From contig CAIJYI010000045.1 of assembly GCA_903824855.1 (NCBI GenBank), positions 1-44,208 on the forward strand: a stretch of DNA of 44,208 nucleotides. Direction: 5' to 3'. The position numbers were made by a program, and so were the translations under genes. Shown piece by piece: positions 1,505 to 43,815 of the stretch. The DNA is from an uncultured bacterium. GTDB lineage: Bacteria; Patescibacteriota; Minisyncoccia; Phycocordibacterales; CAIJYI01. Every line of letters starts with the position of its first letter. Position 1 is the first letter of the stretch. A model generated the notes under the pieces. That model saw nothing but the letters and a program-made list of their open reading frames with translations. It ran no database searches and had not been told where the DNA came from.

Positions 1505-1596
1505 ATGGATTTTTGGCTTTTTCTCTTTATACTACGCTGTACATCGTAACACAGAAATCGTTCAAAAACAACGGCGGTCAGAAAGTATTATGGGAC

Positions 1597-1844
1597 GACG
1601 TGGATTCTGAATCGAGTTCAGAATGACGCGAAGGACGGGCGACGTGGATTCTGAATCTAGTTCAGAATGACGACGAAGGATGGACGACGGACGACGAAGG
1701 ACGGACGACGGACGACGAAGGATGGACGACGGACGACGAGGGACGGACGACGTGGATTCTGAATCTAGTTCAGAATGACGACGAGGGACAGAACCCGTGC
1801 GACGAAGGACGGACGACGTGGATTCTGAATCTAGTTCAGAATGA
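1597..1844. repeat. Four copies of palindromic element GACGTGGATTCTGAATCkAGTTCAGAATGAC
   Basis: Copies at about 1597-1627, 1641-1671, 1748-1778, 1814-1844; near-identical, internal inverted repeat. Confidence 0.9.
1669..1752. repeat. 21-bp tandem repeat x4 (GACGACGAAGGAYGGACGACG)
   Basis: Four consecutive 21-bp units with only single-base variants; degenerate related units continue about 1845-1945. Confidence 0.9.
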
Positions 1845-1990
1845 CGACGAAGGACGGACAAAGGACGACGAAAGACGGATGACGGGCGACGAAAGACGGA
1901 TGACGGGCGACAAAGAACGGACGACGAGGGACGGAAGGGACGACGTGAATTTCGGGTCGTGGACAGGGATGACGAAAAAAAACGGCGTTG

Positions 1991-4887: not shown

Positions 4888-5123
4888 GACGTGGATTCCG
4901 GGTCAAGCCCAGAATGACGAACTAAACGCCGCCCCGCAAATTGCACGGTCGTCATTCTGGAGTTGATTCAGAATCCATGTTTAACATAATGAGTGGATTC
5001 CGGGTCAAGCCCAGAATGACGAACTAAAAAAAGTAAACCGCCGTCCCTGTCGTCATTCTGAACTTGATTCAGAATCCATGTTTAACATAATGACGTGGAT
5101 TCCGGGTCAAGCCCAGAATGACG
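4888..5123. repeat. Five copies, alternating orientation, of palindromic element (GACGTGGATTCCGGGTCAAGCCCAGAATGAC / GTCATTCTGAACTTGATTCAGAATCCA)
   Basis: Copies at about 4888, 4950, 4991, 5051 and 5092; shared linker CCATGTTTAACATAATGA. Confidence 0.9.
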
Positions 5124-5134
5124 ACTAGATTTAT

Positions 5135-6204: not shown

Positions 6205-6240
6205 AAAAACCACTTGGCGGTGAAACCGCCAAGTGATTTT
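6205..6240. terminator. Intrinsic terminator downstream of rnpB
   Basis: AAAAACCACTTGGCGGTGAAACCGCCAAGTGATTTTT. Confidence 0.85.
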
Positions 6241-6365
6241 TATAGGTTCTCGTATCGATAAGCCGAGTTCTGTATTCCGACTTGCGCCGGAACGACAATC
6301 ATTTATCTGGGAATTATGTTACCACAACCCTCGAGCGGCACTTTCCATCGCACCTCACTAGGCGC

Positions 6366-6464
6366 GAAGTTCATCAAGTTTAATGTTCATCAAGTTCATC
6401 AAGTACGACTGTTACGGCGTTACTTTATAAACTTTATGAACTTGATAAACTTTATGAACTTCAA
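6366..6464. repeat. rnpB hairpin insertion B made of 9-bp AAGTTCATC-type repeats
   Basis: GAAGTTCATCAAGTTTAATGTTCATCAAGTTCATCAAGTACGACTGTTACGGCGTTACTTTATAAACTTTATGAACTTGATAAACTTTATGAACTTC. Confidence 0.9.
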
Positions 6465-6664
6465 GCGCAGCGAGGTGCGACGGAACACGGCCTTGCACAC
6501 AGGTAAGAGTTTAGCCGTTTCACCTCGTATGTTACCATACGAACTCTCCCCGAAGGGAGTTTGTTTTCTTTCAAAAACAAACGTCTCTGCTCGCATCTCA
6601 CGGATTGCTCCGGACGGGTGTTACCCGCTACCCTGCTACGGTCGCACCTCGCGAAGCGCGAGGG

Positions 6665-6764
6665 AGTTCATCAAGTTAAAAAGTTATAAAGTTTATCAAG
6701 TTACGACTGTTACGGCGTTACTTGATGAACTTGATGAACTTGATAAACTTGATGAACTTTATAA
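6665..6764. repeat. rnpB hairpin insertion A made of 9-bp AAGTTCATC-type repeats
   Basis: GAGTTCATCAAGTTAAAAAGTTATAAAGTTTATCAAGTTACGACTGTTACGGCGTTACTTGATGAACTTGATGAACTTGATAAACTTGATGAACTTTATAAC. Confidence 0.9.
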
Positions 6765-6913
6765 CATCATACCTCGAGAGGTACGACCGTGTGTGCTCGG
6801 ACTTTCCTCCCCGACGTAAACGCCGGAGCGATTGTCTGATACGGGAACCTATATCAAGTATACCATTTTTTAGAAGTCTTGACAATAGCATTATTATATT
6901 GCGTTTACGGATT

Positions 6914-6963: not shown

Positions 6964-8424
6964 TTATTGTTTTTTCCAGCGAAGGTTTAATTTCTTCGGA
7001 TGGTTTGCTTCGGCTTCATTTACCCTTTGAACGGGAGTGATGTGTGGAGCTTCGTGGAGAAGGTCAGGAGTTTCCTTTGATTCTTCCAAAACTTCACCCA
7101 TCGCTTTAATGAATTCATCGAGCGTTTCTTTTGTTTCCGTTTCTGTCGGTTCAATAAGCATTGCGCCATGAACAGTGAGCGGGAAATAAATGGTCATCGG
7201 ATGGAAGCCCTTGTCTATCAACCGTTTGGCGACATCAAGAGTAACAACACCTTTTGGCATATTTTCTTCGCTCAATAAACATTCGTGCATACAAGGACGA
7301 TTAAAAGGAACTTTGTATCCGAGAGCCGCAAGCGAAACGCGAAGATAGTTCGCATTCAATACTGCTGCTTCTGCAACATCGCGAAGCCCTTTATCCCCCA
7401 TTGTGCGAAGGTAAACATACGCGCGAAGGAGAACAAGAAAGTTTCCATAATGAGAATGAATACGTCCGATAGATTGTTTATCAAAATATGGGGCGAATCT
7501 TCCGTCTTTGTCTTTAATAATTCGAGGACAAGGCAAGAATGGAATGAGTTCCTTTTTTACTCCGACAGGGCCGGCACCGGGACCACCACCACCGTGTGGA
7601 GTGGAAAATGTTTTATGTGTGTTCGTTTGAATCACATCAAAACCCATATCACCGGGGCGAGCTTTTCCGACAAGAGCATTTAAGTTTGCTCCGTCGCAAT
7701 AAAGATATGCGCCCTTCGCATGCAACATATCGGCAATCTTTTTAATGTTTGTTTCAAAAAGACCGAGTGTGCTTGGATTGGTAATCATCATCGCGGCGAC
7801 GTTTTCATCAAGAACTTTTTCCAAAGCTTCGATATTAACGGAACCATCGGGGTCCACTTCAATGTTGATTGGAGTGAATCCTGCAAGCACTGCGCTTGCG
7901 GGGTTGGTACCATGTGCTGATGTGGGGATAAGAACCTTTTCTCTTTTTTCTCCGCGGGCGCGAAATGCGGCGCGAATAATTTTAAGACCGGTTAATTCTC
8001 CATGAGAACCTGCGACAGGATTAAGCGTAAACGCATCCATACCGCAAATTTCATTCATCATCTGTTCAAATTCAAAAAGCATTTTAAAAGCGCTTTGTGT
8101 TTCGGAAACGGGCATGTACGGATGAAGTCCTGTCCATCCTTTCATAGATGCGACACGTTCATTCATCCGAGGATTATGTTTCATCGTGCAGGAACCGAGC
8201 GGATAAAATGTACCATCCACACCGACGTTCTTTTGAGAAAGCCGAGTGTAGTGGCGTATCATTTCCGGTTCGGAAACTTCGGGAAATCCTTCAAGCTCTC
8301 CCCTTGTTTGAAGCAATTTCCTCGGTAATACTTTCAAGTCAGAAGGAATTTCCGGTAAATCAACTCCGATTCGCCCGGCACTTCCTTGTTCAAAAATGAG
8401 TTTTTCCGGTTCATTATGAATCAT
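6964..8424 (-). CDS. gcvPB: Glycine dehydrogenase (decarboxylating) subunit 2
   Basis: LGSCTMKHNPRMNE, NPVAGSHGELTGL, TNTHKTFSTPHGGGGPGAGPVGV (PLP lysine region). Confidence 0.95.
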   Translation of the reverse strand: MIHNEPEKLIFEQGSAGRIGVDLPEIPSDLKVLPRKLLQTRGELEGFPEVSEPEMIRHYTRLSQKNVGVDGTFYPLGSCTMKHNPRMNERVASMKGWTGLHPYMPVSETQSAFKMLFEFEQMMNEICGMDAFTLNPVAGSHGELTGLKIIRAAFRARGEKREKVLIPTSAHGTNPASAVLAGFTPINIEVDPDGSVNIEALEKVLDENVAAMMITNPSTLGLFETNIKKIADMLHAKGAYLYCDGANLNALVGKARPGDMGFDVIQTNTHKTFSTPHGGGGPGAGPVGVKKELIPFLPCPRIIKDKDGRFAPYFDKQSIGRIHSHYGNFLVLLRAYVYLRTMGDKGLRDVAEAAVLNANYLRVSLAALGYKVPFNRPCMHECLLSEENMPKGVVTLDVAKRLIDKGFHPMTIYFPLTVHGAMLIEPTETETKETLDEFIKAMGEVLEESKETPDLLHEAPHITPVQRVNEAEANHPKKLNLRWKKQ

Positions 8425-9770
8425 TTTAAAATCTCCGTAAGTGCATGAACGAATTTATCAACGTCTTCATCGGTATTCATTTCCGTAACAGAAATGAGAA
8501 TATCGTTTTTATTTTCAGGATAATTATCTGCAAGAGCGATGCCGCCGAAAATTTTATAATCGGAGGCAAGACGGTGCAAGAGTTCACATCCTGATAATTT
8601 TGTACGAATGACAAATTCATTGAATGTTGTTCCTGAAAATGGTTCTTCAATATTTTTTATGAGAGAAAGACGAGATCTGAGAAGAAAGGCTTTTTCATAA
8701 TTCAACTCAGCCAATTGAGGCAATCCTTTTTTTCCGTGAAGAGTAAGATACATCGCTGCGGTAGTCGCACACAATGCTTCATTCGTACAAATATTTGAAG
8801 TCGCCTTCTCACGTTTGATATGTTGTTCGCGAGTTGCGATAACAATTACGAAAGCATCTTTCCCTTCTTTATCTTTACCGCGTCCGATGAGACGGCCGGG
8901 CAGGTTGCGAACATTCGCAGTGCCGGTGGCAATCAAACCTAAAAGCGGTCCGCCGAATGATGGTGGCAATCCGAATGATTGTCCTTCACCGACGAAGATA
9001 TCAACGCCGAATTCGCCCGGTGGTTTTAAGAGAGCGAGTGAGAGCGCTTCGGTTGTTACCGAGATAAGAAGTGTTTCAACTTTCGTCGCAACTTCTTTCG
9101 CTTCACCTAAATCTTCTATCACACCGAAGTAATTTGGATAGCCGACAACCATACACATGGCGTCAGTTATTTTTTCGGGATCAAAAATTGTTTTGCCTGT
9201 TTTTTCATCAAAAGGCAATTCGACAATCGGTACATCTATGTCACGCATATAAGTACTGAGTGTTTCTCTATAATGTGGATGAAGTGCTTTTGATACATAA
9301 ACAATTTTTCCTTTTCTGGAAAGTCGTTTAGCCATAAGTACCGCTTCCGCAGTTGCTGTTGCTCCGTCATAAAGAGAAGCATTCGCAACATCCATACCTG
9401 AGAGCATCGCGATGTATGTTTGAAATTCATACAAGGCTTGAAGTGTTCCTTGGGAAGCTTCGGGCTGGTATGGAGTATATGAGGTCAAAAATTCTTCACG
9501 AGAAAGAAGTGCTGAAATAGCAGCCGGTATAAAATGGCGATTTATGCCACCACCCAAAAAGGATGTTTTTTTAACGGCGGCTTCACTTTCTTCCGCAAAT
9601 TTTTCCATGACGGCGGTGAGTTCCATTTCGGAAAGCGGGGCCGGCAAATTAAGCGGTTTTTTCAAACGCAATTCCGACGGAATTTGTTCGAAGAGTTTAT
9701 CAACGTGATCTACGCCAATGGTTTCAAGCATCGCGTCATGATCACTTTTTGTTTCGGGAATATATCTCAT
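8421..9770 (-). CDS. gcvPA: Glycine dehydrogenase (decarboxylating) subunit 1
   Basis: FLGGGINRHFIPAAI, YTPYQPEASQGTLQALYEFQT, NASLYDGATATAEA; 4-bp overlap with gcvPB. Confidence 0.95.
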   Translation of the reverse strand: MRYIPETKSDHDAMLETIGVDHVDKLFEQIPSELRLKKPLNLPAPLSEMELTAVMEKFAEESEAAVKKTSFLGGGINRHFIPAAISALLSREEFLTSYTPYQPEASQGTLQALYEFQTYIAMLSGMDVANASLYDGATATAEAVLMAKRLSRKGKIVYVSKALHPHYRETLSTYMRDIDVPIVELPFDEKTGKTIFDPEKITDAMCMVVGYPNYFGVIEDLGEAKEVATKVETLLISVTTEALSLALLKPPGEFGVDIFVGEGQSFGLPPSFGGPLLGLIATGTANVRNLPGRLIGRGKDKEGKDAFVIVIATREQHIKREKATSNICTNEALCATTAAMYLTLHGKKGLPQLAELNYEKAFLLRSRLSLIKNIEEPFSGTTFNEFVIRTKLSGCELLHRLASDYKIFGGIALADNYPENKNDILISVTEMNTDEDVDKFVHALTEILK

Positions 9771-20623: not shown

Positions 20624-23047
20624 TTATTGACTTGTTTTTTTATTACTATGGCCTTTATGGCTATAGCGACGAGTGTGTTTCTTTTCTAACTTATCTTCTG
20701 CAAGTTCGAAAATTCGAAACTTCACATCGGCAAAGAACATGTCACCTTTTTTGGTTCTCTCTTTACGTAACACGGCAAGATATTTGGGACCGGCAATTGG
20801 CTCAATAACTGAGTTTCTTGAGATCTCATATTCATGACCTGAAACGAAAGCAGAAATACCACCGTGGCGAGATTCTTTCTTGGTGAAAGTTATCTCAACA
20901 CATCCTTCTTTTTTCGCACGAGCGATGGTTTCTTTTTGAATTTTTACGGCCTCTTTCAAAGAGACTTTTTCATCAACAAGACTTCCTTCACTTCGAACGG
21001 TAGCAACGCTTGAACCGCGTTTATATCCGACTACGATTTTATTACCGCCGACAAATTTATCGGGAGATAATTCTTCGAGCCATTTTGGATCAACAAATGA
21101 ACACATTCTCATATATTCTTTTGTTGTACGAACCACTTCAAGAGTACACAACATTGGAGGTTTAGAGCCAAAAGTACTTGAACCGGGGTGTATAAACACA
21201 GGGTCATTAACACGACCTGGGACGACCGGGTAATAGGCATTGCTTCCGCCTGAACGACGGTTGTTTTTACCTTTACGTTCGTCTGTACGTCTGTCACCGG
21301 TGTCGGTTCTTTCTTCTTCCTTGGTTTTATACAAGTTGTGGACTAAGCCTAATGCAATCGCTTTCAATATTTTTTCAACATTGTTAGTGGTTGTTGCATC
21401 AATGCCAAACTCAGCAAGCATTTCAAGCAATTGATTACGAACGTCTGACATTTCCATCAGACCTTTGTCGTTCATATAGTTTTCCAAACACCACTCGGTA
21501 TCGCCGACGTGTTCTTGGTATTCATCCCAAATATTCAAGAATGTTAAAGCATCTGAAACTTGAGATTCAAAACGTTTATGAGCCGCGTCTGATTTTACTT
21601 GTTCTTCTTCTTCAGGAGGACGAAGCATAATATGACCGGCAGCAATAGCTGAAACGATGGTTGCGATTTGTTCCACACAACCGTATTTAACAGAGTTCAA
21701 CAACATGTTAGCTAATACAGGTTCTAAAGGCAGTTTTGCCATTTTTTTACCATGATCAGTTAACACTTCGTTTTTATCCATTGCGCCCATTTTCTTCAAT
21801 GATTCATAAGCTGATACAAACAGCGCATGAGAAGGAAGATCTATGAACGGAAAGTGTTCAACGTCTTCGATACCGATATATCTCATATTAAGAATAACGG
21901 AATCAAGACTTGTGCGACAGATTTCAGGTTTAGTGAATTCAGGTAATGCTTCGTATTCCTCTTCGGTATACAAACGGTAGCAAGTACCTTCTTGTGTACG
22001 ACCAGCACGGCCTTTACGTTGGTTCACACCTGATTTTGAATGCGGTTTGGTTTGCAAACTTGACCTTCCGCTATTCGCGTAAAAGTCCATTTGTTTAATC
22101 GTACCGGGGTCAACAACAAATTTTACACCAACCGGAGTAATAGAAGTTTCAGCCACGTTAGTAGCAATGATAACTTTTCTTTTACCGGGATAGTCTAAAA
22201 ATATCGCAGCCTGTTCATTCAAGTCCATATGACCATAAGCGGGAAGTATTTCAATATTCTCAAGCTCTCTGGCTTTCAAAAATTCGATACAAGCAGCTAT
22301 TTCATTACGACCGGGTAAGAACGCAAGGATGTCACCAACAGCGCCACCTTCGTGGATGTCGGCAATTTTTTGAGCTACTTCAAGCGGTGCACCACGGGGG
22401 TTAAAAAGTTCCCTTTCAAAATGTGGTACTTCACTGTAAATAACTTCAACGTCATATGTACGGCCGGGAATTTCAATGATAGGAGCATCATTAAAAAACT
22501 TTGAGAACTTAATCGCGTCGATTGTCGCAGAAGCGATAATGATACGAAGTTCAGGACGGCTTTTTCTGATGTTCTTCAAATGACCTAAAATATAGTCGAT
22601 GTTTGTACTACGCTCGTGAGCCTCGTCAATCATAACGGCACTATATTCTGTCAATTCGGGGTCATACAACATTTCTTCAGTTAAAATACCATCAGTCATA
22701 TACTCAATTTGAGTATCAGCATTAGTGGTGTTCCAGAAACGAGTATGTCCGGCAACGATGTTTTTTTCTGAATCAATGAAGCCTGCAACATACGGCATTA
22801 AGCTGTGTGCTGCAATACGACGAGGTTCAGTTACACCAATTTTACCGAAATATCCCAAACCTGCTTCAAGCAAGAATAAAGGAATCATTGTTGTTTTACC
22901 GCAACCGGTTTCACCGAGTACGACAACAACTTGATTGTCTTTAATTTTCTGAATAATCGATTCTCTTTTTAAAAGAATCGGTAAATCGGGGAGCGGGTGT
23001 ATACCAACCACTTCCGATAAATTTCGTGCGTATGGTATTACGTTCAT
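20624..23047 (-). CDS. DEAH-box ATP-dependent RNA helicase, HrpA-like
   Basis: VVLGETGCGKTTMIPLF, VTEPRRIAA, MIDEAHERSTNIDYIL, IIASATID, NQRKGRAGRTQEGTCYRLY. Confidence 0.93.
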   Translation of the reverse strand: MNVIPYARNLSEVVGIHPLPDLPILLKRESIIQKIKDNQVVVVLGETGCGKTTMIPLFLLEAGLGYFGKIGVTEPRRIAAHSLMPYVAGFIDSEKNIVAGHTRFWNTTNADTQIEYMTDGILTEEMLYDPELTEYSAVMIDEAHERSTNIDYILGHLKNIRKSRPELRIIIASATIDAIKFSKFFNDAPIIEIPGRTYDVEVIYSEVPHFERELFNPRGAPLEVAQKIADIHEGGAVGDILAFLPGRNEIAACIEFLKARELENIEILPAYGHMDLNEQAAIFLDYPGKRKVIIATNVAETSITPVGVKFVVDPGTIKQMDFYANSGRSSLQTKPHSKSGVNQRKGRAGRTQEGTCYRLYTEEEYEALPEFTKPEICRTSLDSVILNMRYIGIEDVEHFPFIDLPSHALFVSAYESLKKMGAMDKNEVLTDHGKKMAKLPLEPVLANMLLNSVKYGCVEQIATIVSAIAAGHIMLRPPEEEEQVKSDAAHKRFESQVSDALTFLNIWDEYQEHVGDTEWCLENYMNDKGLMEMSDVRNQLLEMLAEFGIDATTTNNVEKILKAIALGLVHNLYKTKEEERTDTGDRRTDERKGKNNRRSGGSNAYYPVVPGRVNDPVFIHPGSSTFGSKPPMLCTLEVVRTTKEYMRMCSFVDPKWLEELSPDKFVGGNKIVVGYKRGSSVATVRSEGSLVDEKVSLKEAVKIQKETIARAKKEGCVEITFTKKESRHGGISAFVSGHEYEISRNSVIEPIAGPKYLAVLRKERTKKGDMFFADVKFRIFELAEDKLEKKHTRRYSHKGHSNKKTSQ

Positions 23048-42955: not shown

Positions 42956-43349
42956 CAAAAAACTCAAAGAGGTTTTTGTATATAAATTTTACAGAATCAT
43001 TAGCAAGACTTATTTAATCAAAAATTATTTTCACACAAATGTTGTGATTTCCAACTTTCCTAATAGGAATCGATAAATTAGTACTTCTCGGCTCAACGCC
43101 TTACAGCGCTTACACCTAAAGCCTATCACGTAATCATCTCTTACGGATCTCAAACGATTCCTCATCTTGAAGCTGGCTTCCCTCTTAGATGCTTTCAGAG
43201 GTTATCCATTCCCGACATAGTTACTCGGCGGTGCTCCTGGCGGAACAGCCGATACACCAGAGGTCAGTTCATTCCGGTCCTCTCGTACTAGGAACAAATC
43301 TTCTCAAGAATCAACGCCTGCAGTAGATAGGAGACCAACCTGTCTCACG

Positions 43350-43815
43350 CTTGATACCATTCATTACTGAATGCAATGGACTATAATATAACCATAATTA
43401 ATTGCTTAATTTTAGGTCGCTGACGTTTAGTCTCTACGGGTGATAATGAGTTTATAAAGTTATAAAGTTTATCAAGTTGTAAAGTAACGACGTTTCCGTC
43501 CGAACTTTATGAACTTTATGAACTTTTCACTTGATGAACTTATTTTCTTCCCTCGGTATTATCCTCGTCGTTTTAGTCTATAACCTAAAAGCTATAACCT
43601 AAAACCTCGTCCGGACTTCACCGATATAAGTCAACTTGATTCAAATATATTTCTATACTTGACCGCCGTGATTCGATTAATTCTATCTCTTTTATTATTT
43701 CTTCATTTAGACGAAAATTCCTCGCGGGATTCAAACTGTTCATAAACCGTAGTTTCGAAAGTTGATATCTCTCCGCGTTATTTTCTATTACACAATGTGG
43801 ATATACCGTTTATAA
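43350..43815 (-). mobile_element. Group I intron in 23S rRNA (about E. coli 2593), ~466 nt
   Basis: Interrupts GGGTTCAAACCGT^CGTGAGACAGG; R-like GTAGAGACTAAACGTC and S-like TTATAGTCC (P7 GACTA/TAGTC), P4 TCGGT/ACCGA, P3 GTTGAC/GTCAGC, 3' end ...TCAAG (omega-G). Confidence 0.88.
43450..43542. repeat. AAGTTCATC-type 9-bp repeat hairpin in intron P6 region
   Basis: GAGTTTATAAAGTTATAAAGTTTATCAAGTTGTAAAGTAACGACGTTTCCGTCCGAACTTTATGAACTTTATGAACTTTTCACTTGATGAACTT. Confidence 0.9.

What the first reader, a model, noticed from the sequence alone, without database searches (positions are those of the whole stretch)
6244..6850. RNase P RNA enlarged by two repeat-built hairpins
The RNA spans about 607 nt, versus roughly 350-400 nt for typical bacterial RNase P RNA. 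The excess is two hairpins built from 9-bp units (AAGTTCATC/AAGTTTATC/AAGTTTATA) with inverted arms and the same cap (ACGACTGTTACGGCGTTA). One lies 5' of the GGTAACACC hairpin, extending a GGTCGTACCTC/GAGGTGCGACC stem. The other lies in the arm after GCAAGGCC (P15-P17 region), extending GTCGCACCTC/GAGGTGCGAT. Both host stems end in a similar GAGGTGCGA, so one insertion may have been copied from the other by recombination.
Basis: partly seen in the sequence, partly recalled or inferred. Interest (0 to 1): 0.75.

Follow-up and report, generated by a model that had tools for sequence, protein, structure and literature searches.

The report
Selfish hairpin repeats inside RNase P RNA
The gene for a near-universal tRNA-trimming ribozyme in this small-genome bacterium has swollen to about 610 bases because a hairpin repeat scattered through its genome, and also found inside its 23S rRNA gene, sits in two of the ribozyme's outer arms, while related bacteria carry quite different hairpin repeats in the same arms.

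Summary
Confirmed and extended. The only rnpB of this Nomurabacteria-type (Patescibacteria) genome lies on the minus strand (about 6852 to 6243). Its core is intact, but it carries two ~140-nt hairpins: A in J5/7 (the place of P5.1 in type-B RNAs) and B in the P15-P17 arm.

The hairpins are not private to rnpB. Their 9-bp-unit arms belong to a repeat family with at least 36 loci in this genome and no match in the two held same-genus genomes or the one same-family genome. Two further copies lie in the 23S rRNA gene, where the sister genome lacks them. The sister's rnpB has a short stem at site A and a different dispersed repeat at site B.

A and B share an 18-nt cap found nowhere else in the genome, so one was very probably copied from the other.

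The pattern is order-wide: 24 of 49 rnpBs have an insert of 75 nt or more at J5/7, P9, P17 or P19, and different arms of one rnpB resemble each other about 30 times more often than arms of different genomes.

Best reading: tolerated palindromic repeats in peripheral helices, as in Rickettsia but reiterated and copied between helices. Mobility mechanism and retention in mature RNA were not shown.

The parts
6243..6852 (-). rnpB, RNase P RNA gene (5' end near 6852)
   Evidence: RF00010 match and direct reading of P1 and P4; core aligns with G001
6838..6853 (-). P1, 5' strand; its partner is 6241-6256
   Evidence: inverted repeat I11, 94% complementary
6799..6809 (-). conserved block GAGGAAAGTCC (P4 5' strand region)
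   Evidence: read, aligned
6259..6273 (-). conserved block ACAGAACTCGGCTTA (P4 3' strand region)
6640..6788 (-). insert A with its stem, in J5/7 between the 5' strands of P5 and P7
   Evidence: in G001 the site holds only GGTTGTCACAAGCGACC
6347..6481 (-). insert B with its stem, in the P15-P17 arm
   Evidence: in G001 the site holds an unrelated repeat
6702..6719 (-). cap of insert A, AACGCCGTAACAGTCGTA
6404..6421 (-). cap of insert B, identical to that of A
6205..6241 (.). inverted repeat with T runs, terminator-like, just after the rnpB 3' end; nearly identical hairpin after rnpB in G001
6857..6885 (-). promoter-like site TTGTCA-17-TATACT just upstream of rnpB
   Evidence: consensus match only
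43449..43541 (-). third copy of the repeat family in the window, inside the 23S rRNA gene

Best explanation
Inserts A and B are members of a genome-specific family of dispersed palindromic repeats: two inverted arms of about 9-bp AAGTTYATM units around a short cap. The family expanded in, or was acquired by, this lineage and landed among other places in loops of structural RNAs, where a hairpin only lengthens an outer helix and leaves the catalytic core alone. One event placed a copy in one rnpB arm (probably J5/7); the second copy arose by copying that unit, with its cap and part of its stem, to the other arm (P15-P17). The RNA most likely still folds and works, with the hairpins as passengers. 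Shown: anatomy, dispersal, absence of the family from the held close relatives, unique shared cap, conserved core sequence. Inferred: how the repeats move, the direction of copying, neutrality, and retention in the mature RNA.
For: Dispersed family: 114 pattern matches against 1 in the control, 0 in G001, G002, G003. Sister rnpB lacks the family and has a different dispersed repeat at site B. Two copies in 23S rRNA at places where G001 has 20-31 nt instead. Cap unique to A and B; end-to-end alignment of A and B. Only rnpB in the genome, core aligned with G001 through all conserved blocks. Similar inserts in 24 of 49 relatives, several of them dispersed in their own genomes; none in P18.
Against: No RNA data; function and retention are assumed. 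No transposase is tied to the family, no target-site duplication was established, and arm length varies, so 'mobile' rests on distribution alone. Some relatives' inserts were found only in rnpB, so dispersal does not explain all cases.
Confidence: 0.8

Rival explanations
1. The hairpins are cut out or nicked after transcription. Long AU-rich double strands would be RNase III substrates, so the working ribozyme would be a fragmented RNA held together by its core, as with 23S intervening sequences in some bacteria (established knowledge, not tested here).
For: Arms of about 40 bp in strong hairpins (-63.8 and -74.2 kcal/mol); both lie in peripheral arms where a nick would leave the core joined by base pairs. 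This is compatible with the best explanation for the DNA and differs only in the fate of the RNA.
Against: Nothing direct; the arms have mismatches and no transcript data exist. RNase III was not searched for in this genome.
Confidence: 0.3
2. The two inserts are functional: they stand in for the P6 contact of type A RNAs (J5/7 with L17) or the P5.1-P15.1 contact of type B, by pairing with or packing against each other.
For: The two sites are the ones joined by P6 in type A RNAs (established knowledge; helix tables in PMC2858038). A and B can pair with each other about as well as with themselves (duplex -145.4 against -138.0 kcal/mol summed), and the minimum-energy fold of the whole RNA uses the crossed pairing.
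Against: Crossed pairing follows automatically from A and B being copies of one palindrome. G001 has a short stem at A and an unrelated insert at B; relatives put copies at other pairs of sites, such as P9 with P19 or P9 with P17.
Confidence: 0.06
3. A and B are independent insertions of the same dispersed repeat, not copies of each other.
For: The family has at least 36 loci in the genome, so two hits are possible, and the flanks of rnpB inserts elsewhere look alike by architecture.
Against: The 18-nt cap is unique to A and B although caps differ among the other copies; both share GTCGNACCTC/GAGGTGCGA stems; 9 of 49 genomes show the same within-gene similarity.
Confidence: 0.1
4. Assembly artefact: repeats wrongly joined into rnpB.
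For: Draft genome of 45 contigs with many short repeats.
Against: It is the only rnpB in a genome rated 100% complete; both flanks of each insert are proper rnpB sequence; about half of 49 other genomes have comparable inserts.
Confidence: 0.03

Closest known systems
Rickettsia palindromic elements (RPE) inserted in the genes for RNase P RNA and tmRNA (Ogata 2002, as reviewed in PMC2229807)
   Same: Dispersed palindromic repeats of 100-150 bp forming long stem-loops, found inside RNA genes including RNase P RNA, presumed neutral.
   Different: Unrelated lineage; arms built of 9-bp units; two copies in one rnpB with evidence of copying between them; relatives carry other families in the same arms.
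STRR repeats in rnpB of heterocyst-forming cyanobacteria (Vioque 1997; title seen, content from memory)
   Same: Short tandem repeats dispersed in the genome that also enlarge RNase P RNA.
   Different: STRRs are heptanucleotide tandem repeats (from memory); here the units form inverted arms with a cap, at two sites, and the host is a Patescibacterium.
Diverged CPR RNase P RNAs with large helix extensions (Lui et al. 2021, PMC8172020)
   Same: Same radiation; enlarged helices, scores below Rfam thresholds.
   Different: The section read describes extended and missing helices but does not connect them to dispersed repeats or to copying within the gene.
REP/REPIN elements with RAYT (Y1) transposases
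   Same: Dispersed short hairpin repeats, non-autonomous; Y1_Tnp genes exist in this genome.
   Different: None of the four Y1_Tnp genes lies beside a listed repeat locus, and relatives without the family have such genes too.
Repetitive hairpin-forming elements of sponge mitochondria and double hairpin elements of other organelles (PMC2800124, title and abstract)
   Same: Hairpin repeats that invade small genomes repeatedly.
   Different: Organellar, unrelated sequences.

Membership tests
Bacterial RNase P RNA, class A (RF00010) | Covariance-model match | tested here: met
   E 3.6e-19 over the full model, but 65.5 bits against a 100-bit curated cut-off; 38 of 59 relatives have no match over the cut-off or none at all
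Bacterial RNase P RNA, class A (RF00010) | P1 closing helix and the two conserved P4-region blocks | tested here: met
Bacterial RNase P RNA, class A (RF00010) | P6 pairing of J5/7 with L17 | tested here: inconclusive
   Both partner sites are filled by inserts; no P6 assigned
Bacterial RNase P RNA, class A (RF00010) | tRNA-processing activity | not testable with these tools
   no experiment possible
Dispersed palindromic repeat of the RPE kind (as a kind, not the RPE family itself) | Many copies of a stem-loop repeat in one genome | tested here: met
   at least 36 loci
Dispersed palindromic repeat of the RPE kind (as a kind, not the RPE family itself) | Copies inside RNA genes that keep their conserved core | tested here: met
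   rnpB twice and 23S rRNA twice
Dispersed palindromic repeat of the RPE kind (as a kind, not the RPE family itself) | Sequence homology to RPE | not tested
   RPE sequences were not compared
REP/REPIN with RAYT | Repeats linked to a cognate Y1 (RAYT) gene | tested here: not met
   Y1_Tnp genes of this genome at C41:88509, C3:10077, C8:2234, C27:1067; nearest listed repeat locus is about 5 kb away on C41 and none is listed on the other three contigs
Group I or II intron | Match to an intron covariance model at the inserts | tested here: not met
   no intron family among the Rfam matches to the rnpB region or the window

The most novel reading that the evidence does not exclude
In this order rnpB is a standing niche for hairpin parasites: elements enter one peripheral helix and are then copied helix to helix within the gene (J5/7, P9, P17, P19), and one family (CCAATTTTGCCTGCC...GGTGGGCAAAATTGG), seen in the rnpB of nine genomes of nine genera, has its long copies only in rnpB.
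Probability: 0.35. Interest if true: 0.8.

Novelty: new variant of a known kind. Interest (0 to 1): 0.6.

Why it matters
It offers a reason why CPR RNase P RNAs look oversized and escape standard models: at least part of the excess is genome-specific repeat DNA and not ribozyme design. It supplies dozens of natural insertion experiments that map where an essential ribozyme tolerates additions of 100 nt and more, and a system for asking how palindromes copy themselves between sites inside one gene.

Tried and rejected
MIR7993, let-7, His_leader and other Rfam hits on or near the hairpins are below their curated cut-offs and reflect long AU-rich hairpins: rejected. A 22-mer around the cap found nothing in the GTDB collection; records of the window's own genome may be left out there, so this says only that no other listed species has it. 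Y1 transposase as the mover: not discriminating. GIY-YIG nuclease as a general mover: present in all ten genomes tested, so no correlation. I first took the GC-rich GAGGTGCGA stem as part of the mobile unit; in G001 and G030 mainly the AT-rich middle of the insert recurs in the genome, which argues that the GC-rich stems are local. Kissing of the identical caps: no self-complementary stretch seen by eye. G002 rnpB was not resolved: neither RF00010 nor a DNA query with the window's core gave a clear match. The Vioque 1997 and Ogata 2002 papers are not held, so they are cited second-hand.

Full report
Observation. The RNase P RNA gene is on the minus strand. RF00010 matches 6243-6683 with E 3.6e-19 and 65.5 bits, and this is the only match in the 1.106-Mb genome. 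The model match starts inside insert A, because A separates the 5' domain from the rest. Direct reading gives the true 5' part: P1 (6838-6853 with 6241-6256), the block GAGGAAAGTCC (6799-6809) and its partner ACAGAACTCGGCTTA (6259-6273). A promoter-like site lies just upstream and a terminator-like hairpin just downstream; the latter is nearly identical after rnpB in the sister genome.

Anatomy. Insert A (6640-6788 with its stem) lies between the 5' strands of P5 and P7, that is in J5/7. Insert B (6347-6481) lies in the P15-P17 arm, and the covariance model itself treats it as an insertion. Each has two arms of degenerate 9-bp AAGTTYATM units and the same 18-nt cap. Folded alone they give -63.8 and -74.2 kcal/mol; the A:B duplex gives -145.4. 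Local and crossed pairing are thus close in energy, and the minimum-energy fold of the whole RNA chooses the crossed form. That follows from A and B being copies of one palindrome and is not by itself evidence of function.

The repeats are dispersed. The pattern AAGTTYATMAAGTTYATMAAGTT with up to 3 mismatches has 114 matches in this genome against 1 for the reversed control. Grouping these with the BLAST matches by position gives at least 36 loci (my count). Of 13 loci read, 8 overlap no ORF of 100 aa or more. Caps differ among loci. The family is sporadic: with up to 2 mismatches 93 matches here, 0 in the two held same-genus genomes and the one same-family genome, 32 in G007 of another family, and few or none elsewhere.

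It also sits in ribosomal RNA. The copy at 43449-43541 is inside the 23S gene, within a larger insert in the hairpin just before the sarcin-ricin loop; there 168 nt replace 31 nt of G001. A second copy on contig C2 extends a hairpin near the 5' end of 23S, where 121 nt replace 20 nt of G001. G007, which also has the family, carries a similar copy at that same 23S site, so that site is either a shared old insertion or a repeated target.

Sister gene. At site B it has a different hairpin whose AT-rich middle recurs through its own genome (36 BLAST matches, both strands counted). Two species of one genus have filled the same arm with unrelated repeats.

Copying between A and B. The cap is found only in these two places in the genome, even with three mismatches. 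A and B align end to end, 85% over 118 nt, better than A with the best other copy (81%). A's stem resembles G001's site-A stem (GGTYGT/GCGACC), and B shares part of it; this weakly suggests that A was the source.

Order-wide pattern. I cut 49 rnpBs at conserved blocks. The segments at J5/7 and P17 form a single hairpin in 42 of 46 and 45 of 47 cases, while P18 never exceeds 24 nt. 24 of 49 genomes have an insert of 75 nt or more at J5/7, P9, P17 or P19. Inserts of G001, G007, G026 and G030 are clearly dispersed in their own genomes, those of G015, G019, G048 and G055 have a few further copies, and others were found nowhere else. Similar segments at different sites of one gene: 11 of 241 pairs, in nine genomes; between genomes: 16 of 10,942 pairs. 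G024 and G035 add two more genes with an element present more than once. Pairs within a genome are not independent and the genomes are related, so this is a strong tendency and not a calibrated test.

Interpretation. Tolerated palindromic passengers in outer helices best fit the sporadic distribution, the interchangeable content and the untouched core. Mobility, retention and any effect on activity remain inferred. The closest precedents are RPEs in rickettsial RNase P RNA and tmRNA (PMC2229807), STRRs in cyanobacterial rnpB (Vioque 1997, title seen, content from memory) and the CPR RNase P RNAs with helix extensions of Lui et al. (PMC8172020). Searches of the held library returned no paper tying CPR rnpB growth to dispersed repeats; that is an absence in that library only, and most subscription papers are not in it.

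Noticed in passing
rnpB of G043, G051, G014, G045, G037, G055, G018, G024, G035 (for example L167 around 22131-22260 of G043:C18; L170; L172): One hairpin family (CCAATTTTGCCTGCC...GGTGGGCAAAATTGG) occurs in rnpB of nine genomes at different helices (J5/7, P9, P17, P19). Its long copies were found only in rnpB; matches elsewhere are short, apart from one 44-nt copy about 150-180 nt upstream of rnpB in G056.
   Followed up: partly
L041:1597-1862, minus (G034:C9:18317-18595): The P17 arm of G034's rnpB holds a small GIY-YIG nuclease ORF (PF01541, E 1.7e-17) between inverted ends CCCCCACCACTTTA/TAAAGTGGTGGGGG.
   Followed up: partly
window 43345-43815, minus: About 470 nt inserted in the 23S hairpin just before the sarcin-ricin loop; most of it is shared with G001, with the 9-bp repeat as an addition inside it. 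No Rfam intron match.
   Followed up: partly
window 1593-1937 and 4888-5124: Tandem copies of GTGGATTCTGAATCxAGTTCAGAATGACG-type palindromes, another dispersed-looking repeat.
   Followed up: no
G013:C2:29474-29694 (L127): The P12 insert of G013's rnpB has relatives of 69-74% identity in G026, G017, G030 and G034, so this element is shared across genera.
   Followed up: no
window 6964-9770, minus: Two adjacent ORFs look like the two subunits of glycine decarboxylase (by reading the translation); apart from G001 the listed relatives of the first are mostly non-CPR bacteria, 45-55% identical. Unusual for a Patescibacterium and possibly acquired.
   Followed up: no
G002 (same genus): No clear rnpB was found by RF00010 or by the window's core sequence; either a missing stretch or a gene too distorted to detect.
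   Followed up: no
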